Origin: Solirubrobacterales bacterium
GTDB taxonomy: Bacteria > Actinomycetota > Thermoleophilia > Solirubrobacterales > 70-9
Direction: 5' to 3'
NCBI GenBank assembly: GCA_020438445.1
Contig: JAGQUO010000006.1
Span: 1-47,388, forward strand
Length of the DNA stretch: 47,388 bases
In this document: one piece after another, positions 2,826 to 44,852 of the stretch
How the letters are laid out: each line of letters opens with the position of its first letter
Numbering within the stretch: the stretch's first letter is position 1
Made by a program: the position numbers and the translations under genes
The notes under the pieces: generated by a model
What the model saw: the letters and a program-made list of their open reading frames with translations, nothing else
Database searches by the model: none
What the model was told of the DNA's origin: nothing

Positions 2826-3446
2826 CTAGCCGCGGCGTCGTCCGGCCGCCGCGACGAGGGCGGTCATCAGCTCCACCGCCTCCTCGGCCCCGAGGCCTTC
2901 GTCGCGGACGATCGAGCCCCAGGTCGAGAACGCGAGTGCGTGCCCGATTGCAGCCGCCGCTCGCGTGCGGGCCCGTCCCCGCTCGGCACGTCCCCTCATG
3001 AGCACGGCGGCCGCCTCCTCCCGGTAGGCGTCCATGGCGGCGACCGCGCGACCGACCGCCGGGACCCGCTCGGCGTCGCGGCCGGTGCTCTCCAGCATTC
3101 CGTGCGTCTCGTCGTAGAAGGCGTAGATCTCGTTCAACCCGAGGCGCAGGCGCTCGTCCGGGTCGCCGACCGCGGCCCAAGCCTCGAGATCGGGCGGCGG
3201 GTGCAACGCGTTGTAGTGCGAGGTGCAGGCGGCGTAGATCGCGTCCTCGTCCGGGAAGTGGCGATAGACCGTCGCGCGCTGCACCCCTGCCTCGCGGGCG
3301 ATCCCGCTCACGGTGGTCTTGGCCGGACCGATCGTCCCGTGGAGCTTCACGGCGGCCTCGGTGATGCGCCTGCGCGTCTCCTCTTCGCGCTCCGCGCGCC
3401 TCCGCTTCCGGTACTTCCGGGGCTTCTCGTCAATTTCGTTGCTCAT
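2826..3446 (-). CDS. TetR/AcrR family transcriptional regulator
   Basis: DNA-binding repressor of 206 residues. A basic N-terminal extension (KYRKRRRAEREEETRRRI) leads into the TetR helix-turn-helix at about residues 28-70: TTVSGIAREAGVQRATVYRHF with the recognition helix QRATVYRHFPDEDAIY. The C-terminal helical ligand-binding domain has no recognisable specificity. It is divergent from the cupin gene across an 88-base intergenic region that contains both promoters and palindromes. The usual arrangement would be self-repression plus control of the cupin gene. The ligand is unknown. Confidence 0.93.
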   Translation of the reverse strand: MSNEIDEKPRKYRKRRRAEREEETRRRITEAAVKLHGTIGPAKTTVSGIAREAGVQRATVYRHFPDEDAIYAACTSHYNALHPPPDLEAWAAVGDPDERLRLGLNEIYAFYDETHGMLESTGRDAERVPAVGRAVAAMDAYREEAAAVLMRGRAERGRARTRAAAAIGHALAFSTWGSIVRDEGLGAEEAVELMTALVAAAGRRRG

Positions 3447-32541: not shown

Positions 32542-32991
32542 TCAAACGCCGAGCTCCCGCGCGAGCACCTCGAGACCCTCGCGGTAGCCGTCGAGCCCCT
32601 TGCCCGAGATCTTCGCCGCGACGAGGCCGTCGAAGACGGAGATCGAGCGCCAGTCCTCGCGCGCGGAGACGTCGCTGATGTGAACCTCGACGGCGGGCTT
32701 GGCGGCGACCTCGAGCGCGTCGCGGATCGCCCACGAGTAGTGCGTCCAGGCACCGGCGTTGATCAGGACGGCGTCGGCGGTCCCGGGCACACGGTGCAGG
32801 TACTCGCAGAACTCACCCTCGTGGTTCGTCTGGAAGAAGGACATCTCGAGGTCGAGGTCCCGTCCGAACCCGTGGATCCGGTACTCGTACTGCGACAGGC
32901 TCTCGGTGCCGTAGACCTCGGGGTCGCGCTTGCCGAGCATGTCGAGGTTGACGCCGTGCATCACGGCGACCCGGTTGTGCGCGGTGCTCAT
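32542..32991 (-). CDS. aroQ: type II 3-dehydroquinate dehydratase
   Basis: 149-residue shikimate pathway enzyme converting 3-dehydroquinate to 3-dehydroshikimate, normally a dodecamer. Catalytic features are present: Arg and Tyr of the lid in DMLGKRDPEVYG, Asn in LINAGAWTHYSWAIRDAL, His in VEVHISDVSAREDWR with its Arg. It departs from the classic type II pattern: HGVNLDML replaces NGPNLNLL, NAGA replaces NPGA, and HISD replaces HISN. A divergent but probably active subfamily. The ATG overlaps the aroKB stop by 4 bases (32988-32991). Confidence 0.92.
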   Translation of the reverse strand: MSTAHNRVAVMHGVNLDMLGKRDPEVYGTESLSQYEYRIHGFGRDLDLEMSFFQTNHEGEFCEYLHRVPGTADAVLINAGAWTHYSWAIRDALEVAAKPAVEVHISDVSAREDWRSISVFDGLVAAKISGKGLDGYREGLEVLARELGV

Positions 32992-34541
32992 CTCGCCAGC
33001 TCCTCGACCACGCGCCGGAGGCTAGCGGCATCGATCCGCTGCCCGAACCTGACCTCGCCGGGAGCGGAGATCGTGACGAAGCCGATCCCCTCGGCGGTCC
33101 GCTTCTTGTCGCGGCCGACGGCGTCGAGGACCGCCTCGGCGTCGACGGCGGCGTCGAGCGACGTCGGCAGGCCGGCGCGGTCGAGCAGCGCGGCCACCTC
33201 CTGTCCGAGCCCCTCGGCGCCCGAGAGGCGCAGCGCCGCGACGAGGCCGATCGAGATCGCCTCCCCGTGGCGGTACCGCTCGTATCCGGTGGCCGCCTCG
33301 ATCCCGTGCCCGACGGTGTGACCGAGGTTGAGGACCGCGCGCAGGCCGGAATCGCGCTCGTCCGCGCCGACGACGCCGAGCTTGGTGGCGGCGCAATCGA
33401 AGACGAGCGGGGCGACCGAGTCGGCGTCCACGACCTCCAGATCGCGGACCCGCTCCCAGAGTGGCCCGCCGGCGATCAGCGCGGTCTTGACGACCTCGGC
33501 GAAGCCCGCGGCGAGCTCGGCCGCCGGCAGCGTCCGCAGTGCCTCGGGATCGGTGAGCACCGCCGCCGGCTGGTGGAAGCAGCCGACGTAGTTCTTGCCC
33601 TCCGGGAGGTCGACCCCGGTCTTCCCCCCGTACGCCGAGTCGACCTGCGCGACGAGGGTCGTCGGCACCTGGACGACCGGGATGCCGCGCTGGTAGACGG
33701 CGGCGCAGAAGCCGGCGAGGTCGCCGGCGACGCCGCCGCCGAACGCGAGCAGCGCATCCTCGCGGCGGACCCCGGCGCGGGCGAGCTCGCGGAGCAGCGC
33801 TTCGGCTCCACCGACCGTCTTCGCAGTCTCGCCGCCCGCGAACAGGACGGGCTCACCCTCGACGGCGGGCATGAGCCCGCCGGCGGCGGCGTACGCGTCG
33901 CGGTCGGCCATCCCGAAGAGGCGGACGCCGGGCCGGAGCGCGGGCGCATCGTCGAACAGGCGCGTCGCGCCGGGGCCGACCACGGCGGGCGCATCGCCCG
34001 AGGGCGTTCGCGACCAGTACATGCGGACCTCGGGGCGGTCGCGAAGCGCATCGAGCCAGGGGGCGGCCGCGAAGCCGATCTGCTCGCCCCCGGAAGGCAG
34101 CACGACCCGGCCGCAATCCTCGTAGAGGGGGCGACGGGCGCTCCAACGGCGCCGGAAGCCGTCGCGGTCGCGCGCAAGCGGGCGGTCGGTGCCGCTGGAG
34201 CGCTCCCAGGCGACCTCCTCCTCCACCCGGCACCAGGCGGTCACGTGGCCGGCCAGCGCCGCGCGGATACGCTCGCTCTCGACCGCACCGCCCCCGAGCG
34301 CGACGATCTCGCCGAAGCGGTCGAGGGCCTCGAGGACGACGCGCTCCTCGAGCTCGCGGAAGGCGGGCTCGCCGTGCTCGCGGAAGTAGCCGGAGATCGA
34401 GCCGCCCGGGATCTGCTCGGCGATCAACCGGTCGGTGTCGACGAAGCCCGTCCCGAGCGCGCGGGCGGCCCCGCGGGCCGCGGCGGACTTGCCGGCTCCC
34501 ATGAAGCCGATGAAGACGATCGAGGCGCGCTCAGCCGGCAA
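32988..34541 (-). CDS. aroKB: fused shikimate kinase / 3-dehydroquinate synthase
   Basis: 517-residue bifunctional protein. Residues 1-165 are shikimate kinase: Walker A GFMGAGKS (12-19), FVDTDRLIAEQIPGGSISGYF, FRELEERVVLEAL, and the lid with DRPLARDRDGFRRRW. From about residue 170 to the end is NAD- and zinc-dependent 3-dehydroquinate synthase: FGGGVAGDLAGFCAAVYQRGIPVVQVPTTLVAQVDSAYGGKTGVDLPEGKNYVG, ELAAGFAEVVKTALI, NLGHTVGHGIEAATGY, HGEAISIGLVAA, RDKKRT. Both active sites look intact. The start is TTG at 34541, 11 bases inside the aroC 3' end. It provides two non-consecutive pathway steps in one chain. Confidence 0.93.
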   Translation of the reverse strand: MPAERASIVFIGFMGAGKSAAARGAARALGTGFVDTDRLIAEQIPGGSISGYFREHGEPAFRELEERVVLEALDRFGEIVALGGGAVESERIRAALAGHVTAWCRVEEEVAWERSSGTDRPLARDRDGFRRRWSARRPLYEDCGRVVLPSGGEQIGFAAAPWLDALRDRPEVRMYWSRTPSGDAPAVVGPGATRLFDDAPALRPGVRLFGMADRDAYAAAGGLMPAVEGEPVLFAGGETAKTVGGAEALLRELARAGVRREDALLAFGGGVAGDLAGFCAAVYQRGIPVVQVPTTLVAQVDSAYGGKTGVDLPEGKNYVGCFHQPAAVLTDPEALRTLPAAELAAGFAEVVKTALIAGGPLWERVRDLEVVDADSVAPLVFDCAATKLGVVGADERDSGLRAVLNLGHTVGHGIEAATGYERYRHGEAISIGLVAALRLSGAEGLGQEVAALLDRAGLPTSLDAAVDAEAVLDAVGRDKKRTAEGIGFVTISAPGEVRFGQRIDAASLRRVVEELAR

Positions 34542-35691
34542 TGCGCTGGCGGTAGGCGTCGATGGCGGCGCGCACGTCGTCGATGTGGTCGCCGCCGAAT
34601 TTCTCCCGGTAGGCGCGGGCGAGGGTGAGCGCCAGCATCGCCTCGCCGACGACGCCGGCGGCGGGGACGACGGTCGAATCGGTGCGCTCCTTGTGCGCCG
34701 CCTTGGGCTCCTTCGTGTGGACGTCGACCGAGCGCAGCGGCTTCGTCAGGGTCGAGATCGGCTTGATCGCGACCTGGACGATCAGGGTCTCGCCGTTGGT
34801 CATCCCGCCCTCGAGCCCGCCGGCGCGGTTCGTCTCGCGGTGGTAGCCGCGCTCGGGCGAGTGGAAGATCTCGTCGTGGGCCTCCGAGCCGGGACTCGCC
34901 GCGACCTCCCAGGCCGGGCCGATGCTGACGCCCTTGACCGACTGGATCGAGACCATCGCCTGCGCGATCCGGCCGTCGAGCCGCTCGTTCCAGGCGATGT
35001 GAGAGCCGAGCCCGGGAACGAGGCCCCAGGCGCGAGCCTCGAACGTGCCGCCGAGGCTCTCGTTCTCCTTGCGGAGCCGGTTGATCTCCTCGACCATGGC
35101 CGCCGACGCGTCCGCGTCGAGGCAGCGGACCGGGTCGTCGTCGACGCCGTCGAAGTCGGCGGGCTCGAGGTCGGCCGGCGCGGGAGCGTCGACCCCGGCG
35201 ATCCGGGTGACGTGGCTGCGGACGGTCACCCCGACCGCCGCGAGGAACTGGCGGGCGAGTGCGCCGGCGGCGACGCGAGCCGCAGTCTCGCGGGCGCTCG
35301 CCCGCTCGAGCACGTTCCGCGCGTCCTCGAAGCCGTACTTGAGCAGTCCCGGCAGGTCGGCGTGGCCGGGCCGCGGCAGATGGACCTGCTGGACGCCCTC
35401 GCCGCTCTCCCACGGCCCCATCCGCTCGACCCAGTTCTCGTAGTCGCGGTTGGCGACCAGAAGGGCGATCGGGCTTCCCAGGGTCTTTCCGTGGCGAACG
35501 CCGGAGCGGACCTCCGCGGTGTCCTTCTCGATCTTCATCCGCCCGCCGCGGCCATGACCGAGCTGACGGCGTGCCATGTCCCGATCGAGCCCCTCGCGAT
35601 CGAGCTCGAGGCCCGCGGGCATGCCCTCGACGATCGTCGTCAGTCCCGGGCCGTGGGACTCACCGGCGGTTACGAAATCGAAACGGGCCAT
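34531..35691 (-). CDS. aroC: chorismate synthase
   Basis: 386-residue FMN-dependent enzyme turning EPSP into chorismate, the last common step of aromatic biosynthesis. Signatures seen are FDFVTAGESHGPGLTTIVEGMPAG, MARRQLGHGRGGRMKIEKDTAEVRSGVRHGKTLGSPIAL, RPGHADLPGLLKYGFEDARNVLERASARETAARVAAGA, SVKGVSIG, and NRAGGLEGGMTNGETLIVQVAIKPISTL. Full length. First gene of the aroC-aroKB-aroQ-peptidase run. The 81-base gap to the upstream pilus gene has no recognisable terminator, so read-through from the pilus locus is possible. Confidence 0.96.
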   Translation of the reverse strand: MARFDFVTAGESHGPGLTTIVEGMPAGLELDREGLDRDMARRQLGHGRGGRMKIEKDTAEVRSGVRHGKTLGSPIALLVANRDYENWVERMGPWESGEGVQQVHLPRPGHADLPGLLKYGFEDARNVLERASARETAARVAAGALARQFLAAVGVTVRSHVTRIAGVDAPAPADLEPADFDGVDDDPVRCLDADASAAMVEEINRLRKENESLGGTFEARAWGLVPGLGSHIAWNERLDGRIAQAMVSIQSVKGVSIGPAWEVAASPGSEAHDEIFHSPERGYHRETNRAGGLEGGMTNGETLIVQVAIKPISTLTKPLRSVDVHTKEPKAAHKERTDSTVVPAAGVVGEAMLALTLARAYREKFGGDHIDDVRAAIDAYRQRIAG

Positions 35692-37488: not shown

Positions 37489-38319
37489 TCAGCCTCCGGG
37501 CACCAGGTTCGTGGCCTTCTCGGCCTTGGCCTTCGCGTCGTCGACCGACTGCTGCTCGCTCGTCGTCGTCTCCGACGAAGAGGAGGTCGAAGCGGAGGCC
37601 GGCGCGGTGCCGTCCGCCGGCGGGACGGCCGGCGGCACGTCGGCGCCGACCGCCGGGACGGCGTCGAAGGCGGCGACGGCCTGGAAGCCCGGCGCCGAGC
37701 GCGGGCAGTCGCCACCCGTGTCGACGGAATCGGAGCTGTCGCTCGATGCCGTCGAGTCGCTGGTCGTGTCGGACTTGATGCCGTTGGCCGCCGTCACCCG
37801 CGTCACGCCGTCGATGTCGTGCAGTGCCGCGATCAGCTTCGCGATCGCCGGCTGGGAGCGCGCGCACCCGACGAGCTCGAGCGCCGGTCCGGGGACGGAC
37901 GTCCGCAGGCCGATCGCCGCGCCGTCATCGATCTGGACCTCCGGGGAGACGGTGCCGGTCAGGTTCGAGAGCCAGACCTGCTTGGGGATGACGAGCGAGA
38001 GCTCGCGGATGACCCGCTCCCAGTCGAAGCGGCTCTTGGCGAGCGAGTCGATCGTCGCCGCACGCGACTCCCGCATCTGCTGGAAGCTCACGTAGGAGGC
38101 CAGGCCCTCGGCCCGCGCCTCGGCCTCGACCGCCTGCGCTTCGAGGCTGTCGACCTCTGCCTGCTTGTCGTCGACCTTGTTGCCGAGCAGGACGATCGCG
38201 CTGACAGCGACCAGGACGACGGCGAGCACGCCGACGACGAGGTAGGAGAGCACCCCGGTCCGGCTGGGCGCCGTACTGCCGCGGCGCTCCTCGGGCGGAA
38301 TCAGGTTGACCGGGCGCAT
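37489..38319 (-). CDS. pilN: type IV pilus assembly protein PilN-like
   Basis: 276-residue bitopic protein. The N-terminal cytoplasmic PilM-binding peptide is seen as MRPVNLIPPEERRG (the conserved NLLP-type motif). One TM follows (LVVGVLAVVLVAVSAIVLL), then a coiled coil (VDDKQAEVDSLEAQAVEAEARAEGL) and a fimbrial assembly domain (FDWERVIRELSLVIPKQVWLSNLTG). The C-terminal third is Ser/Thr/Ala-rich (about residues 185-265) with two Cys flanking. It couples cytoplasmic PilM to PilO at the membrane. The start is 3 bases after the pilM stop. Confidence 0.9.
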   Translation of the reverse strand: MRPVNLIPPEERRGSTAPSRTGVLSYLVVGVLAVVLVAVSAIVLLGNKVDDKQAEVDSLEAQAVEAEARAEGLASYVSFQQMRESRAATIDSLAKSRFDWERVIRELSLVIPKQVWLSNLTGTVSPEVQIDDGAAIGLRTSVPGPALELVGCARSQPAIAKLIAALHDIDGVTRVTAANGIKSDTTSDSTASSDSSDSVDTGGDCPRSAPGFQAVAAFDAVPAVGADVPPAVPPADGTAPASASTSSSSETTTSEQQSVDDAKAKAEKATNLVPGG

Positions 38320-38322
38320 CGG

Positions 38323-39441
38323 CTACTCCTCCAGCCCCAGCCCGAACGGAAGCGTGAGCCGCGCGGCGTCGGCCGCGTCGAGGCCGGCGAGCGCGGGCGG
38401 GCGACCGACTCGGATCGCGTAGCCGAGCAGCTGCTCGAGGCGAGCCGGGACCCCGGCGATCACGGCACCGGGCCCGCAGACCACGATCTCCTCGATCGAC
38501 ACGGCGCCCTCCTGGGTGCCGTAGTAGTCGAGCGAAAGGCGCATCTCGTCGGCGAGCTTGGCGACGCCGTCCTCGAGCGACTCGCGGGTCGCCTGGACGA
38601 TCGCGGGATCGCCCTCGACAGTCTCGACCGGCGCCTCGACGCCGACGTGGCCGAGCCACTGACGGGCGTGCTCGAGCGTCAGCTCGCGGCGCTCGGCGAG
38701 GCGCTGAGCAATGCCCTCGATCCCGAACGTCGAGACCCGGGTGAACAGGCAGTCGCCCTCGCGGGCCACCGCGAGGTTCGTGTTGTCGCCGAGGGAGCAG
38801 AAGAGCTTCGCCTGGCTGACCGGGGCCGGCGCCGTCGCGTCGGCGTCCGCCGCAGCTGCGGGATCGGACGCGACCGGCTGGATCCCGTCGGTGTCCTTGC
38901 TGAGCGCGCGGATCAGGCCGAAGGCGGAGACGTCGAGGCCGACCGGCCGCAGCCCGGCGTCGCGGACGACCCGAACCAGGTCGCCGACCATCTCGCGGCG
39001 CGCGGCGACGACGACCACGTCCATCTTCCCCTCGGCGCGCAACTCCGGGTTCGGCCGCAGGCGCTGCCAGTCGAAAACGGACTGCTCCAGCGGCATCGCC
39101 AGGTCCTCCTGCGCCTGGAAGCGAACGGCGGCGTCGAGCTCCTTGTCGTCGTCGATGAAGGGAAGGCGAAGGGTGCGGACGACGACGCGCTGGTTCGCGA
39201 TCCCGACCCGGACGTTGCGGGGCAGCTTGTGCTCGGCGAAGAGCTCCTTGATCGCCCCGGAGAGCGCCTCGCTGTCGCTGACCTCACCCTCCCGGGTGGC
39301 GCCGGGCGGGATCGCCGCCACGCCCGAGCGCCCGAGGCTGATGTCGCCGTTGGTGACGACCTCGGTCGCGGCGACGGTCGCGGCTTCGATATCGAGGCCG
39401 ACGATCGAGTTGATCTTGCGGGCGCCCAGCGACAGTGCCAT
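38323..39441 (-). CDS. pilM: type IV pilus assembly ATPase-like protein PilM
   Basis: 372-residue actin-fold cytoplasmic protein that binds the PilN N-terminus. It starts IVGLDIEAATVAATEVV (phosphate-1 strand), with RVGIANQRVVVRTLRLPFIDDDKELDAAVRFQAQEDLAMPLEQSVFDWQ, VVVVAARREMVGDLVRVVRDAGLRPVGLDVSAFGLIRAL, TNLAVAREGDCLFTRVSTFGIEGI, and the late EEIVVCGPGAVIAGVPARLEQLLG as in PilM. A short Ala/Asp-rich insert (SDPAAAADADATAPAP) interrupts the middle. First of the pilM-N-O-P set; 77 bases separate it from pilD. Confidence 0.93.
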   Translation of the reverse strand: MALSLGARKINSIVGLDIEAATVAATEVVTNGDISLGRSGVAAIPPGATREGEVSDSEALSGAIKELFAEHKLPRNVRVGIANQRVVVRTLRLPFIDDDKELDAAVRFQAQEDLAMPLEQSVFDWQRLRPNPELRAEGKMDVVVVAARREMVGDLVRVVRDAGLRPVGLDVSAFGLIRALSKDTDGIQPVASDPAAAADADATAPAPVSQAKLFCSLGDNTNLAVAREGDCLFTRVSTFGIEGIAQRLAERRELTLEHARQWLGHVGVEAPVETVEGDPAIVQATRESLEDGVAKLADEMRLSLDYYGTQEGAVSIEEIVVCGPGAVIAGVPARLEQLLGYAIRVGRPPALAGLDAADAARLTLPFGLGLEE

Positions 39442-39518
39442 GCCCGGAACTCATCGGCCGCTGCCGCCACTCCCTTGAATCGCGGGCGCGGCGCGGCAAA
39501 CGCATTTCATCCGGCGTC

Positions 39519-40283
39519 TCAGCCGCTGAAGAACGAATCCACGTACCAGTCGACCATCGCGTCGCCCGCGAACAGCGCGAGGACGCCGCCGAAGGCGAGA
39601 AACGGCCCGAACGGAACCGCCCGCTTGCGCGCCTCCGAGCCGTGCCTGGCGATCAACGCAACCCCGTACAGGGCGCCGGCCGCGAAGCCGATCAGAAGCG
39701 CCGGCGCGACCGCGCGACCGAGGAAGAGCCCCATCACGAAGGCGAGCTTGACGTCGCCCATCCCCATCCCCCGCGGGTAGGCCAGCGAGACGATCAGCAG
39801 CGCCCCGCCCGCTATCGCGGCGGCGAGCAGGTGCGGGCCGAGCTCGCCGGTGTCCCAGAGTGCGACCAGGGCGATCGCCGCAATCGCCGCGGGCCCGAGG
39901 ACTACGTTGGGGATGATCCGGTGCTCGAGGTCGGTCAGGGTGATGATCGCGAGCACGAACAGGAACGTGCAGGCGAGCGCCACCGCCGCTGCACCGTCGT
40001 CCTCGTAGGTGAGCCAGGAGGCGAGAAAGCCGAGCCCGAGGGCCGCCTCGGTCAGCGGATAGAGCGCGGGGATCCGTGCTCGGCAGTCGCGGCAGCGGCC
40101 GCGAAGCACGAGCCAGGAGAGGACCGGGACGTTGTCGCGGGCCGCGACCACCGCTCCGCAGGACTCGCAGTGCGAGCGACCGCCGAACGGCGACTCGTCG
40201 CGCGGGACGCGATAGGCGATGACCCCGGCGAAGCTGCCGAGCAGGAGCCCGAGCAGGGTGATGAGCACGGCGGCGACGATCAC
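39519..40283 (-). CDS. pilD: prepilin peptidase/N-methyltransferase PilD
   Basis: 254-residue polytopic membrane aspartyl protease that cleaves class III signal peptides and methylates the new N-terminus. The methyltransferase part carries two Cys pairs (HCESCG and GRCRDC). Catalytic Asp motifs are TDLEHRIIPN and GMGMGDVKL. The typical opening LLGLLLGSFAGVIAYRVPRDESPFGGRSHC and RARIPALYPLTEAALGLGFLA are present. The GTG start at 40283 fits the first TM. It processes the pilins encoded upstream in the same direction. Confidence 0.95.
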   Translation of the reverse strand: MIVAAVLITLLGLLLGSFAGVIAYRVPRDESPFGGRSHCESCGAVVAARDNVPVLSWLVLRGRCRDCRARIPALYPLTEAALGLGFLASWLTYEDDGAAAVALACTFLFVLAIITLTDLEHRIIPNVVLGPAAIAAIALVALWDTGELGPHLLAAAIAGGALLIVSLAYPRGMGMGDVKLAFVMGLFLGRAVAPALLIGFAAGALYGVALIARHGSEARKRAVPFGPFLAFGGVLALFAGDAMVDWYVDSFFSG

Positions 40284-40323
40284 GGGCCGGGGAAGCTATC
40301 CGCGGGGTCGGCGGCTGCCCCGT

Positions 40324-41922
40324 TCAGGGATCGATCGTCTGCCGCTGCATGTGCCAGGCCGACTCGACCGGATCGAGGAAGTGCGGCGGCGAGAGGTAGC
40401 GGAGGCGGTCGTCGTAGGTGTAGACCTTGTTGTAGCCCGAGTTGCCGACCGTGCCGACCGGCCCGCGGAACTTCTGCGAGATCGCGCCGTTGACGGTCAG
40501 GTTGCCCAGCTGGTTGCCGCAGTTGTAGTGGTCGACGATGAACGAGTGCTGGATCGAGAGCATCGCGGCGTCGATCCTCAGGTTCGACTGCGAGCCTGAT
40601 CCGTTGCTCGTGCCGTTGCAGTTGCTCGCCGACGTCGAGGAGTTCGACGGGCTGAGCGGGTGATAGACGCGGATGAAGTTGTTGGCGATCAGGCCGAGCA
40701 GCCCGTTTCCACTCGGGCTGCCGGAGCAGCTGCCGCGGCAGAGGTCGTTGTTGACGATGATGTCGTTCTCGGCCGCGATCGTGAGCTGGCCCGAGTAGTT
40801 GCCGGAGATGTAGACGTTCCCGCAAGCCGAGTTGCTCGGGTACATCGAGTTCGTGCTCACATAGGGCGAGTACGCGCTCGAACAGGCGCTCGAGGTGCTG
40901 TTCGCGATGTAGACGACGCCGCTGCTCGGGATCGGAACGGTGCTGGTCGATCCCGAATTGGTCGTCACCGTCATCTGCGTGCCGCTGAGGGCGATCCGCG
41001 TCTGGCCGGTGTAGACGGCGGCCCCGTCGACCGTCTTCAGGCTGTCGTTGGTGCTCGGCGGCGTCAGCACCGGGGCGTTCGTCAGATAGGTGCCGCGGAA
41101 GTTCGGGTTCGTGCTGCCGCAACCGCCCGAGCCGCGGTAGCCGGTGGGCGGCGAGCTGACCTCGATCAGGTCGCTCGGGCCGCGGCCGAAGGTCGGCGAA
41201 CCGCAGATGTTGAGCTCGTCGTTGGTGTGCAGCGGCCCGTTGATGTACTCGCCGCTCGCGAACACGATCTCGACGCACGGCAGGGTGCTGAACCGGCGGC
41301 CGTCGCGCCAGGTCTTCACGCACTGCTGGTAGGCCTGGTTGATCTGCGAGGAGGACCCGTAGGCGACCGGGTCGAGCGTCTCGTACTGCGTGAAGTAGAT
41401 GTAGTCGAGGAACGAGGCCCGCTTGAACGAGGCGACGATGCTCTGCTCGGTGTCGCCGGAGTATCCGGTCGAGCGGATCCGGAAGGTCCCGTTGGTGATC
41501 CCCCCGGACTGCTCGATCATGCTGTTGACCGGGTCGCTGGGGTTGCAGACGCTCTTGCCGGTCGCGGGAATCAGCTCGAGGGCGTAGCTGGCTCCGGTGT
41601 TGCCGGGCACGTTGCGGCGGTTCGCGGTCGAGCCGATGTTGTTGACCGCGTTCGGCGCCGGCACGTTGGTGCACTTCGCCCAGTAGCTGTTGTCCTTGTT
41701 GAGGTGGAACGAGTAGTCGGCGAGGCCGGCGCGGGCGGCCTCGTATGCCTTCTTCTGGTCGAGGTCGCGGCCGGTGATGTTGATGTCGCCGTTGACGGCG
41801 GTGACCGTCGCCGCCATCGCCAGGGTGACGACGAGCAGCGCGAGCATCGCCGTCGCCATCGTGAAGCCGTCCTCGGCTGCGGCCCGGCGACGTAATCCGG
41901 CGGCGAGATTCCTCAGGTGCAT
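40324..41922 (-). CDS. PilX-like large minor pilin
   Basis: 532-residue pilus-associated protein. The class III signal AAAEDGFTMATAMLALLVVTLAMAATVTAV has the Gly/Phe cleavage site but no Glu at +5, as in PilX/GspK-like subunits. KKAYEAARAGLADYSFHL is the conserved segment of PilX-type proteins. The large distal part is Ser/Asn/Thr-rich with about a dozen Cys and segments such as EIVFASGEYINGPLHTNDELNICG and LTIAAENDIIVNNDL, reminiscent of beta-helix-like pilus-tip proteins. It overlaps the preceding pilin gene by 10 bases. Probably part of the tip initiation complex. Confidence 0.82.
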   Translation of the reverse strand: MHLRNLAAGLRRRAAAEDGFTMATAMLALLVVTLAMAATVTAVNGDINITGRDLDQKKAYEAARAGLADYSFHLNKDNSYWAKCTNVPAPNAVNNIGSTANRRNVPGNTGASYALELIPATGKSVCNPSDPVNSMIEQSGGITNGTFRIRSTGYSGDTEQSIVASFKRASFLDYIYFTQYETLDPVAYGSSSQINQAYQQCVKTWRDGRRFSTLPCVEIVFASGEYINGPLHTNDELNICGSPTFGRGPSDLIEVSSPPTGYRGSGGCGSTNPNFRGTYLTNAPVLTPPSTNDSLKTVDGAAVYTGQTRIALSGTQMTVTTNSGSTSTVPIPSSGVVYIANSTSSACSSAYSPYVSTNSMYPSNSACGNVYISGNYSGQLTIAAENDIIVNNDLCRGSCSGSPSGNGLLGLIANNFIRVYHPLSPSNSSTSASNCNGTSNGSGSQSNLRIDAAMLSIQHSFIVDHYNCGNQLGNLTVNGAISQKFRGPVGTVGNSGYNKVYTYDDRLRYLSPPHFLDPVESAWHMQRQTIDP

Positions 41923-42611
41923 GGCAGACCAGCCTGTTCGGTGTCTTCGTTGCTCGGCGAGAAGCGCAGGAGCGCCGAGTTGGTCAGCTCGATCGGCGCC
42001 CCCTCCTCGTCGGAGGTGCCGCTCTTGGTCGGGGCGACGGCGAGCGAGATCGTCACCTGCACGGTCCGCGCCGCGTCGTCGGTGCTCAGCGGGACCGGGA
42101 GCGGCGTGTCGGAGATCACCCCGTTCTCGTAGGCGAAGTAGCTGAAGATCGGCGTCGTGCCGCCGATCTGCCCGACGTGCTCGAGCAGGCGGTACGTCGA
42201 GCTCGGCGTCGACGAGAACGTCCAGTCGGGCGCGGTCCCGCCCGTCTTCGCGAACGTCTGATCGGTCAGATACCCGTTGCTGCTGTTCCAGGCGATCGTC
42301 CGCTTGACCGGGGTCGGCGAGACGTCCGGGCCGGTGCCGTGGATGAACGAGATCGCGTCGCTGTTGCTGCCGGACTGGATCGGCGCGAGCCCGGGCGAGA
42401 TGCAGGCGGAGTGCATCTCGTTCATGACCCGCTGCATCATCGGCCGCGCGAGCTGGTTGGCGGCGACGCGCTCGGTGATCCGGCCGCTGCTCTTGGCGGT
42501 GACGGTCACGAGCGTCACGATCGCGCCGAGGACGATCATCCCGACCAGCATCGCGACCAGGAGCTCGGTCATCGTCAGCCCCCGCTCGTCGTGGATCAGG
42601 CGCCGGCTCAC
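41913..42611 (-). CDS. PilW-like minor pilin
   Basis: 232-residue prepilin. The signal HDERGLTMTELLVAMLVGMIVLGAIVTL has the Gly cleavage site and Glu at +5 of the mature N-terminus. After the helix (AANQLARPMMQRVMNEMHSACISPGLAPIQSGSNSDAISF) comes a beta-rich head similar to PilW/PulJ-type subunits. The GTG start at 42611 overlaps the upstream stop as GTGA, which decides the start; the long open frame further upstream is shadow coding inside the neighbouring gene. Confidence 0.88.
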   Translation of the reverse strand: MSRRLIHDERGLTMTELLVAMLVGMIVLGAIVTLVTVTAKSSGRITERVAANQLARPMMQRVMNEMHSACISPGLAPIQSGSNSDAISFIHGTGPDVSPTPVKRTIAWNSSNGYLTDQTFAKTGGTAPDWTFSSTPSSTYRLLEHVGQIGGTTPIFSYFAYENGVISDTPLPVPLSTDDAARTVQVTISLAVAPTKSGTSDEEGAPIELTNSALLRFSPSNEDTEQAGLPCT

Positions 42612-43966
42612 GGACAGCTCCCGCTGCTGCTGCCGGAGGCGAAGCTGCCGACGTAGATCGTCAGGTTCGTGTCCGTCGCGGTCGTCTTCACCTCGATGTT
42701 CGAAGCGGTGTTCTTGCGGTTCGTGCTGGGCCGGTAAGCGCAGACGTCGTAGGTGCCGTAGGGCAGCCCCGGCGTGTCGAGCTTGCCGGAGGAGTTGGTC
42801 GTCAGCGTCCGCTTGACCGGGTTGCCGCCGACCGTGCACTCGGTGTCGGTGACCTTGACGGTGGCGCCGTTCACCGGCGAGCCCGGGTTGCCGCTCGAGT
42901 TGCCGCTCATCACCGTCAGGTTCAGCGCCGGAAGCTGGATCGTCGCGTTCGCCGTCTGCCCCGCCACGACGCTGACGTCTGCCATCGCCGCGGCCGCGGG
43001 CGGGTTGGTCAGGTCGTCGGGATTGGGGTTGTTGGCGGCGCAGTTCCCGGCGTAGACCGCGTACGGCGAGGAGAACGGGAACACCGGCGTCGCGGTGACG
43101 TCGGTCGCCCGGCTGCCGACGGTCCCGAACGCCTTCTCCTGGGTCATGCCGGTGTTGAAGATCGTGATCGTGTCCTGGGTCGTGTTCTGGACGCTGCCGT
43201 TGATCCGCGTCCGGAAGTCGACCTTGATCGAGCCGGGGGTGTCGTAGCGAAGGACGAGCGTGTTCGTGCTCTGGCCGACGACGCTCGTGTCTATCGGCGC
43301 CGGCGGATTGCCGTCGGCATCGACGACGCCCGCCGCCGTGCTCGGGGTGAGCGTGTAGTTGCCCTCGGGCAGGTCGGTGAAGAGGATGCATCCGGTCGGT
43401 CCCGTCGAGCCGCTGAAGGACCCGGCGCCCGAGCCGGAGAGCGGAACGCCCTCGATGCCGTTGCCCTGGCCGTCGCGGATCACGACCGCGAGCGCACCGG
43501 TGTCCTCGGAGCGCGAGCCCGCCGGCGGTGCGACGATGCTCTTGATCACCGTCGCCGGGCGATTGCCGATCGACGGCCAGGTGACGACCGAGGTGATGCT
43601 GATGTAGTCGGAGGAGTTCGTCCCCTCCTCGCAGGAGGCGGTCCCGGTGATGTCGTTGACGAACTGTCCCGTCGAGTGGACGTCGTAGTCGGTGCCGCCG
43701 GCGCTGATGGTGGTCGTCTCGTCGAGCCCGTCGAGCTGAGAGACCTGCAGGGACCGCAGCCGCGCCTGGTCCTTCTGGGCGATCGCGTAGGACTCGGCGT
43801 GATGCCGCTGCTCGGAGCCCGCCCGGCCGGCGGCCTGGAGCGCTCCGAAAGTCGCCCCCATCACGACCGCGATCACGACCGCGGTGACGAGCACCTCGAT
43901 GATCGTGAACCCATCCTCCGACGAGACGCCGGGACGGGAAGCAGTCGTTGCTTCCTCAGTATTCAT
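42608..43966 (-). CDS. PilV-like minor pilin with two carboxypeptidase-regulatory-like domains
   Basis: 452-residue prepilin, far longer than ordinary PilV/GspI. The signal SSEDGFTIIEVLVTAVVIAVVMG has the Gly/Phe site and Glu at +5. After the pilin head come repeated beta-sandwich-like units: ALAVVIRDGQGNGIEGVPLSG ... GCILFTDLPEGNYTLTPST, and later LNLTVMSGNSSG ... GATVKVTDTECTV ... GKLDTPGLPYGTYDVCA. Both follow the pattern of carboxypeptidase regulatory/CNA-B-like folds. Likely displayed at the pilus tip for adhesion or stability. The ATG at 43966 is preferred; an upstream ATG at 44029 is in frame. Confidence 0.83.
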   Translation of the reverse strand: MNTEEATTASRPGVSSEDGFTIIEVLVTAVVIAVVMGATFGALQAAGRAGSEQRHHAESYAIAQKDQARLRSLQVSQLDGLDETTTISAGGTDYDVHSTGQFVNDITGTASCEEGTNSSDYISITSVVTWPSIGNRPATVIKSIVAPPAGSRSEDTGALAVVIRDGQGNGIEGVPLSGSGAGSFSGSTGPTGCILFTDLPEGNYTLTPSTAAGVVDADGNPPAPIDTSVVGQSTNTLVLRYDTPGSIKVDFRTRINGSVQNTTQDTITIFNTGMTQEKAFGTVGSRATDVTATPVFPFSSPYAVYAGNCAANNPNPDDLTNPPAAAAMADVSVVAGQTANATIQLPALNLTVMSGNSSGNPGSPVNGATVKVTDTECTVGGNPVKRTLTTNSSGKLDTPGLPYGTYDVCAYRPSTNRKNTASNIEVKTTATDTNLTIYVGSFASGSSSGSCP

Positions 43967-44055
43967 GCGCGCATGAACCCATCGGCTCGCGGGGACGCCA
44001 CCTTGAGTTATGAACCCGTTTTCCGTCATCGAGCCCGAATCAGCGCCGAAAGCAG

Positions 44056-44083
44056 AAGAGGCGGGCCCGGAGGCCCGCCTCTT
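44056..44083 (-). terminator. terminator after pilA
   Basis: Perfect 12-base arms (AAGAGGCGGGCC, 44056-44067, and its complement, 44072-44083) with a 4-base loop. It lies 35 bases downstream of the pilA stop. It should raise pilA mRNA stability or level relative to the minor pilins, with partial read-through possible. Confidence 0.75.
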
Positions 44084-44118: not shown

Positions 44119-44553
44119 CTAGCCCCAGTTGCCGCTACTCGGACAACCACCGTCACCGGTCGTGGTGCAGGTGTAGTCGAGCGAGCCGTTGGCGTTCCGG
44201 GTCAGCGTGAACGCATTCCCCGAGTCGGAGTCGCCGACGATCGTGTAGGTGTCGGCGGCGCCGGTGATCGTGACGTCGCCCGAGAAATCGTTGATCGATC
44301 CCTCGATCGCGGCGAGGTCGGCGATCGCGCTCGTGTTGTAGGAGCCGTTGTTGTCGACGGCGTAGGTCTCGTAGGCCGTCTGCACGGTCCGGACGTTGGC
44401 CTTCGCGTCGGAGTCGTAGCCCTTGTCACGCTGGCTGAAGAAAGCGGGGATCGCGATCGCAGCCAGGATGCCAAGGATGAGCATGACGACCAGGAGCTCG
44501 ACCAGCGTGAAACCGGCTTCCTCTCTGCGCCGTGCGCGGTACATCTCCAGCAT
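44119..44553 (-). CDS. pilA: type IV major pilin PilA
   Basis: 144-residue prepilin. A short leader (MLEMYRARRREEAG) is cleaved before FTLVELLVVMLILGILAAIAIPAFF, with Glu at +5 and the proline kink. The mature protein then has SQRDKGYDSDAKANVRTVQTAYETYAVDNNGSY and a short beta sheet ending in TCTTTGDGGCPSSGNW, a two-Cys D-region. The mature size (about 130 residues) is typical of a major pilin. The ATG at 44553 is set by GAGGAGGG 6 bases upstream. Its roughly 150-base leader carries a c-di-GMP-I riboswitch candidate, and a terminator follows, so it is a separately regulated unit ahead of the minor pilin operon. Confidence 0.95.
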   Translation of the reverse strand: MLEMYRARRREEAGFTLVELLVVMLILGILAAIAIPAFFSQRDKGYDSDAKANVRTVQTAYETYAVDNNGSYNTSAIADLAAIEGSINDFSGDVTITGAADTYTIVGDSDSGNAFTLTRNANGSLDYTCTTTGDGGCPSSGNWG

Positions 44554-44623
44554 AGTTACCCTCCTCGGGTCTACTAAGTGGAGCCGGAGCCTGTCGCCAA
44601 GCCATTCGGAGTTCGAACCCCAG

Positions 44624-44702
44624 TGGTAGCCCGGCTTGCTTCCCGTGAAGGAAGCCCCGTGGCTTTGCGCCCCCATCTCGCAATGAGTTTGCCTCCGCAC
44701 CA
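44624..44702 (-). promoter_or_regulatory. c-di-GMP-I (GEMM) riboswitch candidate in the pilA leader
   Basis: On the minus strand the order of GEMM-I landmarks can be read. The outer helix TGGTG/TACCA (44702-44698 with 44628-44624) is followed by GGAGGCAAAC, a CTCATT/GATGGG helix capped by a GCGA tetraloop (GNRA, the docking loop of the class), the core GGCGCAAAGCCACGGG, a GCTTCC/GGAAGC hairpin, and the closing AAGCCGGGCTACC. About 79 nt, the size of known aptamers. The distance to the start codon is about 70 bases and contains no U-tract terminator, so control is more likely at translation or RNA stability. I judge the class from memory of its conserved core. Confidence 0.75.
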
Positions 44703-44852
44703 GAGCCCCAGCTCTATTTCCGTTTCCCGCGCTCTATCGGCTCGTGGGATGGTCACCTTTAGCCCTGCTGATGGATTTTTCGTACGTTCGCTGAGCGCCC
44801 GGCCCCAGAATCACCTGGGTGCTGGCCCCCAGAGCGGCGACGAGGAGCGCTG

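What the first reader, a model, noticed from the sequence alone, without database searches (positions are those of the whole stretch)
44624..44702. c-di-GMP-I riboswitch controlling the major pilin gene
The pilA leader contains the GEMM-I core in order: GGCAAAC, a helix with a GNRA loop, GCGCAAAGCCACGGG, a variable hairpin and AGCCGGGCTACC, closed by TGGTG/TACCA. Control of pili by c-di-GMP is known in other phyla. Here the switch would act on the major pilin alone, since a strong terminator (44056-44083) follows pilA. A related GEMM variant senses 3',5'-cGAMP; the base just before GGCAAAC decides, and I cannot align it reliably by eye.
Basis: partly seen in the sequence, partly recalled or inferred. 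Interest (0 to 1): 0.62.

Follow-up and report, generated by a model that had tools for sequence, protein, structure and literature searches.

The report
c-di-GMP riboswitch on WhiG-driven pilin gene
The message for this actinobacterium's main pilus protein starts at a promoter whose sigma factor is probably blocked by the signal molecule c-di-GMP, and the same message carries an RNA sensor for c-di-GMP, so one gene appears to be read out by two sensors of one signal that differ about a thousand-fold in sensitivity.

Summary
In detail: 44703-44622 (minus strand) is a full-length c-di-GMP-I (GEMM-I, RF01051) aptamer (53.7 bits, gathering score 35, E 7.8e-8), ending 68 nt before the ATG of the pilin gene. 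The deciding base, G20 (Vc2 numbering), is the first G of GGCAAAC and is G here and in all 54 class aptamers read, so the ligand should be c-di-GMP, not cGAMP. The arrangement is conserved: 14 genomes in 9 genera of the family have the aptamer 57-80 nt before this pilin.

The genome encodes WhiG and a single-motif RsiG, the anti-sigma that holds WhiG when c-di-GMP is bound. So pilA is probably under two c-di-GMP sensors; I found no report of this pairing. The aptamer sits inside an outer stem-loop (P0); a congener lacks just the aptamer but keeps promoter and P0. Folding predicts no intrinsic terminator and no SD-sequestering switch in the window, so the output step and its sign (ON or OFF) are unknown. 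Every element is known; the combination is a new variant.

The parts
44734..44761 (-). sigma28/WhiG-type promoter: -35 TAAA (44761-44758), 16-nt spacer, -10 GCCGATAG (44741-44734); predicted start of transcription about 44728
   Evidence: only match to TAAA-N12..18-CCGAT in the window, 0.17 expected; 11 of 12 consensus positions; 13 of 14 orthologous leaders score 9 or more of 12 at the same place, against 13% of shuffles
44704..44714 (-). P0 5' strand GAGCUGGGGCU (outer stem around the aptamer)
   Evidence: predicted in MFE and centroid folds, recovered by RNAalifold, 2 of 6 pairs with changes on both sides, kept in leaders without aptamer
44622..44703 (-). c-di-GMP-I riboswitch aptamer; ligand contacts G20=44693, A47=44666, C92=44626
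   Evidence: RF01051 53.7 bits, E 7.8e-8; only copy in the genome
44698..44708 (-). P1 5' strand GGGCUCUGGUG
   Evidence: pairs with 44625-44615; P1 is 5-11 bp in all 14 leaders, 94.6% of cells paired
44615..44625 (-). P1 3' strand CACUGGGGUUC, which contains C93
44602..44626 (-). P4, an alternative hairpin (CCA...UGG lower stem) that takes up C92, C93 and the P1 3' strand; mutually exclusive with the closed aptamer
   Evidence: MFE of the free leader; 74% of cells paired, 4 of 8 pairs with changes on both sides
44581..44591 (-). P0 3' strand GGCUCCGGCUC
44558..44570 (-). Shine-Dalgarno AGGAGGG (44565-44559) in a 4-bp mini-hairpin ACCC-GAGGA-GGGU
   Evidence: predicted; a similar mini-hairpin in 12 of 14 leaders by a permissive search without a shuffle control
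44119..44553 (-). pilA, major type IV pilin, 144 aa (GFTLVELLVVMLILGILAAIAI)
   Evidence: Pfam N_methyl 34.9 bits; P0001
44056..44083 (-). strong GC hairpin after pilA, terminator-like with a weak T tail
   Evidence: z -5.5; not listed by the terminator scan
37489..44029 (-). rest of the pilus cluster downstream: pilin-like genes, prepilin peptidase, PilM, PilN-like
   Evidence: Pfam N_methyl, Peptidase_A24, PilM_2, and PilN just below its cut-off

Best explanation
The pilA transcript starts at a WhiG-type promoter and carries a canonical c-di-GMP-I riboswitch, so c-di-GMP acts on the gene twice. First, through RsiG: at micromolar c-di-GMP the anti-sigma should hold WhiG and stop initiation. 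This is inferred from the pair being encoded here and from biochemistry in relatives. Second, through the leader: at much lower c-di-GMP the ligand locks P1 and the P2/P3 core. That excludes the P4 hairpin and the extended pairing of the P1 5' strand into the outer stem P0. Shown by sequence, covariation or homology: aptamer, ligand-contact bases, P1/P4 exclusivity, P0, promoter match, WhiG, RsiG, DGCs and PDEs in the genome. Inferred: ligand binding, WhiG dependence, any effect on expression. In the window no intrinsic terminator and no Shine-Dalgarno sequestration is predicted, so the output is most likely leader stability, Rho-dependent termination or ribosome loading. I lean weakly (about 55%) to an ON switch: if the nanomolar sensor switched pilA off, the micromolar RsiG sensor would have nothing left to do at this gene, whereas an ON switch gives each sensor its own job and makes pilA highest at intermediate c-di-GMP.
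For: Aptamer. Conservation 57-80 nt before the pilin ATG in 14 genomes, 9 genera. G20 in all 54 aptamers read: with the numbering taken from PMC7288161. P0 and P1 covariation; P4. Promoter. WhiG: 358 bits to NCBIfam WhiG, cut-off 343. RsiG: 86 aa with ERDVSYRRRMLHGKID, i.e. E(X)3S(X)2R(X)3H(X)3D, matching solved RsiG chains at 4e-12 to 3e-8. In the literature, single-motif RsiG from Conexibacter woesei, which also has His in the motif, binds c-di-GMP with WhiG at 1.7 uM, and WhiG promoters serve pilus genes in Rubrobacter (PMC8325347). c-di-GMP-I aptamers bind at about 1 nM (PMC3627812). No flagellin in the genome; 10 GGDEF and 3 EAL matches over cut-off; PilB/PilT-type ATPases. WhiG-type promoter plus aptamer plus pilin recurs in other Actinomycetota, including the named genome Paraconexibacter antarcticus.
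Against: No binding, transcript-start or expression data. Several relatives make pilA without the aptamer, so it is dispensable. The aptamer-competent fold is 2.6-10.8 kcal/mol less stable than the free fold before ligand and tertiary contacts are counted. The Shine-Dalgarno is about equally open in both states in the window and most leaders, so no output step is visible. WhiG-type sites also precede many non-pilin aptamers, so that pairing is not specific to pilA.
Confidence: 0.72

Rival explanations
1. The aptamer senses 3',5'-cGAMP (GEMM-Ib) rather than c-di-GMP.
For: Same fold family; cGAMP GEMM-I aptamers are known in Geobacter (PMC8835794).
Against: The discriminating position is G20 here, while the cGAMP-binding form has A20 (a G20A mutant binds cGAMP, PMC7288161). 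All 54 class aptamers read have G20. The GGDEF domains whose motif could be read carry no serine at the Hypr position, but only about half of the ten were readable.
Confidence: 0.05
2. The riboswitch works, but the promoter belongs to another sigma factor and RsiG/WhiG do not act on pilA, so there is a single c-di-GMP input.
For: Promoter calls from sequence are weak evidence; three leaders (L042, L046, L054) have only TTAA/TCAA and GTCGAT.
Against: Match of 11 of 12 in the window and its closest relative, constant position, and also kept at 10-11 of 12 in 6 of 7 leaders without the aptamer; no sigma70-like promoter in the stretch; WhiG promoters serve pilus genes in Rubrobacter.
Confidence: 0.15
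3. OFF switch acting with RsiG: c-di-GMP lowers both initiation and leader output, giving a tight shut-off.
For: Both sensors would then act in the same direction; no result here excludes it.
Against: With sensors about 1000-fold apart in affinity (literature values) the RsiG layer would be redundant at pilA. The pilin riboswitch of C. difficile is an ON switch (PMC4744006).
Confidence: 0.4
4. The aptamer is a relic on its way out.
For: Aptamer-free pilA leaders in genera g1, g5 and g10.
Against: All ligand contacts intact, compensatory changes in P1 and P2, full-length model match.
Confidence: 0.05

Closest known systems
c-di-GMP-I (GEMM-I) riboswitch, Rfam RF01051; type example Vc2 of Vibrio cholerae
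   Same: Full model match, G20/A47/C92, GNRA tetraloop helix, P1/P2/P3 layout
   Different: P1 extended to 11 bp; aptamer enclosed in an outer stem P0; WhiG-type promoter; no visible terminator or anti-SD
c-di-GMP-II riboswitch of a pilin gene in Clostridioides difficile
   Same: c-di-GMP riboswitch upstream of a type IV pilin gene
   Different: Unrelated aptamer class; there an ON switch shown in vivo; no sigma/anti-sigma layer known to me
[quoted passage not shown]
   Same: WhiG promoter consensus on pilus genes, single-motif RsiG, c-di-GMP
   Different: That paper does not mention a riboswitch; here the same transcript also carries one
merRNA of Bdellovibrio (PMC3627812)
   Same: c-di-GMP riboswitch RNA, specific to the attack phase, whose genes are largely under a FliA/sigma28-like promoter
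   Different: No downstream gene; proposed as a c-di-GMP store; the paper's table does not mark merRNA itself as having a FliA promoter
cGAMP GEMM-Ib riboswitches of Geobacter
   Same: Same fold
   Different: A20 instead of G20; cGAMP ligand

Membership tests
RF01051 c-di-GMP-I riboswitch | Covariance model score over the curated threshold | tested here: met
   53.7 against 35 bits, positions 1-87
RF01051 c-di-GMP-I riboswitch | Ligand-contact bases G20, A47, C92 | tested here: met
   G44693, A44666, C44626; numbering from PMC7288161 and PMC4744006, matched to the Vc2 sequence as I remember it
RF01051 c-di-GMP-I riboswitch | P1/P2/P3 helices with compensatory change | tested here: met
RF01051 c-di-GMP-I riboswitch | Binds c-di-GMP and changes expression of the downstream gene | not testable with these tools
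   Needs in-line probing and a reporter
GEMM-Ib (cGAMP) riboswitch | A at position 20 | tested here: not met
   G in the window and in all 54 class aptamers read
RF03167 c-di-GMP-I-GGC | Score over threshold 59 and the consensus base G at Vc2 position 47 (CGCGAA) | tested here: not met
   48.0 bits; CGCAAA here. In small searches this model wins the clan overlap by E-value only
WhiG/sigma28 promoter | TAAA - about 16 - GCCGATAA at conserved distance | tested here: met
   11 of 12; 0.17 expected in the window
WhiG/sigma28 promoter | Transcription start at the predicted place, dependent on WhiG | not testable with these tools
   No transcript data
WhiG sigma factor | NCBIfam WhiG equivalog score over cut-off | tested here: met
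   358.3 against 343
RsiG single-motif anti-sigma | Small protein with one E(X)3S(X)2R(X)3[QH](X)3D motif, homologous to solved RsiG | tested here: met
   86 aa, ERDVSYRRRMLHGKID; PDB 6pfj 4.1e-12, 7lq2-7lq4 about 3e-8
RsiG single-motif anti-sigma | Binds WhiG in a c-di-GMP-dependent way | not testable with these tools
   Shown for C. woesei and R. radiotolerans (PMC8325347), not for this protein

The most novel reading that the evidence does not exclude
A two-threshold c-di-GMP readout on one pilin transcript. The leader riboswitch turns pilA ON at nanomolar c-di-GMP and RsiG/WhiG turns it OFF at micromolar c-di-GMP, so pili are made only in a middle window of the signal. This would be an old cassette of deep-branching Actinomycetota, with the aptamer as a removable insert in an outer 5' stem-loop.
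Probability: 0.35. Interest if true: 0.75.

Novelty: new variant of a known kind. Interest (0 to 1): 0.56.

Why it matters
RsiG/WhiG is a structurally characterised c-di-GMP switch of Actinomycetota, reported to control type IV pili in unicellular members. If the main pilin transcript also carries a c-di-GMP riboswitch, the pilus is read out at two signal thresholds, and earlier work on the WhiG regulon missed a layer. Natural leaders with and without the aptamer, in one genus, make the contribution of each sensor directly testable.

Tried and rejected
The primary GEMM-Ib paper is not held; the position-20 rule rests on reviews and related papers. A first bound-state fold enforced a wrong pair (G21-C93), giving infinite energies or an inflated cost; it was redone with G21-C46, C22-G45 and P1. 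Looked for an intrinsic terminator in the leader: none on the minus strand. Looked for a Shine-Dalgarno switch: mean accessibility of the Shine-Dalgarno is unchanged in the window and most leaders. c-di-GMP-I-GGC (RF03167) rejected: below threshold, A47 not G. Phage origin: no similar DNA in phage records. Genome-wide WhiG sites by strict pattern: 3 in the genome against 2 for the reversed control, so the count alone proves nothing; support comes from conservation at pilA. A Pfam call on non-pilin targets failed on wrong frames and was not repeated. PilB carries an MshEN domain, but by eye its first c-di-GMP half-motif lacks the RLG and the final Gln, so I do not claim a third sensor.

Full report
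1. The observation. A scan of the window against all Rfam families gives a single match over threshold: RF01051, c-di-GMP-I, 44703-44622 on the minus strand, 53.7 bits (threshold 35), E 7.8e-8, complete over the 87-position model. It is the only RF01051 match in the 2.69-Mb genome. The aptamer ends 68 nt before the ATG of a 144-aa type IV pilin, followed by pilin-like genes, prepilin peptidase, PilM and a PilN-like gene.

2. Ligand. In PMC7288161 the contacts of the Vc2 aptamer are listed as G14 C15 A16 C17 A18 G19 G21 and C46 A47 A48 A49 G50. Matched to the Vc2 sequence (from memory), GGCAAAC is G20 G21 C22 A23 A24 A25 C26. All 54 class aptamers read from loci have G there. A47 and C92 are also present (A44666, C44626). 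A second Rfam family, c-di-GMP-I-GGC, scores 48 bits, below its threshold of 59, and its consensus G at position 47 is A here. c-di-GMP is the expected ligand; binding was not tested.

3. Distribution. RF01051 is found in 164 of 399 genomes of the class and in 69 of 128 genera, so the aptamer as such is ordinary in this class. In the window's family 17 of 41 genomes have it, and in 14 of them, in 9 genera, it lies 57-80 nt before an orthologous pilin. Most aptamers elsewhere in the class precede other genes, many of them apparently secreted proteins.

4. The promoter. Upstream of the 14 aptamer-pilin leaders is a sequence like the flagellar/WhiG promoter: in the window TAAAGGTGACCATCCCACGAGCCGATAG. 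It is the only such match in the window (0.17 expected). Scored against TAAA-N13..17-GCCGATAA, 13 of 14 leaders reach 9 of 12 or more, against 13% of shuffles, always at the same place. Many non-pilin aptamers in the class have it too, so WhiG-driven aptamer transcripts may be general there. The genome encodes one clear WhiG and an 86-aa protein with the single RsiG motif, similar to solved RsiG chains. [quoted passage not shown]). That paper contains no occurrence of the word riboswitch. No flagellin was found in this genome, so WhiG is not expected to serve flagella here.

5. Leader anatomy. On an alignment of the 14 leaders, RNAalifold recovers P0 + P1 + P2 + P3 without being told. P1 is 5-11 bp in every leader. 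Counted on the alignment, 94.8% of cells pair, 18 cells show changes on both sides (shuffles 5.5 +/- 1.9), and sliding the partners destroys it. An alternative hairpin P4 uses C92, C93 and the P1 3' strand, and also shows two-sided changes. P1 and P4 cannot coexist. In the window and most relatives the free fold prefers P4 with P0 extended into the P1 5' strand; the aptamer-competent fold costs 2.6-10.8 kcal/mol before ligand and tertiary contacts.

6. Natural deletion. In the congener G029 (pilin 83% identical) the promoter, both P0 strands and the Shine-Dalgarno region are kept and the aptamer with its P4 segment is missing, leaving a 13-bp hairpin. Other relatives (G065, G220, G398, G286, G262, G369) also lack it and mostly keep the promoter and a stem. 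The aptamer thus looks like a removable insert in a 5' stem-loop that has a role of its own.

7. Output. In the window there is no intrinsic terminator in the leader, and the Shine-Dalgarno is equally accessible in free and aptamer folds. The output step is therefore open: mRNA stability, Rho or ribosome loading. In a more distant actinobacterial leader with the same promoter-aptamer-pilin order (L154) a stable hairpin with a run of U follows the aptamer (z -4.0), though the simple terminator scan did not list it; other lineages may use termination.

8. Spread of the cassette. An exact-pattern scan for promoter plus aptamer in named genomes stopped at 118 stretches. By motif and by eye about 15 precede pilins, and those carry actinobacterial titles, including Paraconexibacter antarcticus, Solirubrobacteraceae, Thermoleophilaceae and Egibacteraceae. 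In other phyla the same pair precedes other genes, some of which look flagellar.

9. Verdict. The riboswitch is real and an ordinary member of its family. The new part is its place on a WhiG-type pilin transcript in an organism with RsiG, which puts one gene under two c-di-GMP sensors of very different affinity. The affinities come from literature on other sequences, and the sign of the riboswitch is unknown.

Noticed in passing
L209:2198-2279 and 3068-3149 (Paraconexibacter antarcticus, NZ_CP098502.1): Two neighbouring pilin genes each have their own c-di-GMP-I aptamer; the cassette seems duplicated.
   Followed up: partly
L110-L227: A sigma28-type promoter followed by a c-di-GMP-I aptamer recurs in Armatimonadota, Desulfobacterota, Thiobacillus and others; some downstream proteins look like FlgK or FlgM by eye.
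   Followed up: partly
G000:C210:14925-14950 (L298): A second strict WhiG-type site lies inside aroE, 200 nt upstream of pilB; similar sites recur in G029, G182 and perhaps G093, but conservation is confounded by coding sequence.
   Followed up: partly
G000:C210 pilB (L298:6429-8225): PilB has an MshEN domain (59 bits), but its first c-di-GMP half-motif looks degenerate.
   Followed up: partly
L154:580-680: In another actinobacterial aptamer-pilin leader a hairpin with a U tract lies between aptamer and pilin, suggesting control by termination there.
   Followed up: partly
window 42608-44029: Pilin-like protein of 473 aa with a SpaA/prealbumin-like domain near its end.
   Followed up: no
window 32988-34541 and 34531-35691: Apparent fused shikimate kinase/dehydroquinate synthase and chorismate synthase directly downstream of the pilus genes, read by eye from the translations.
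   Followed up: no
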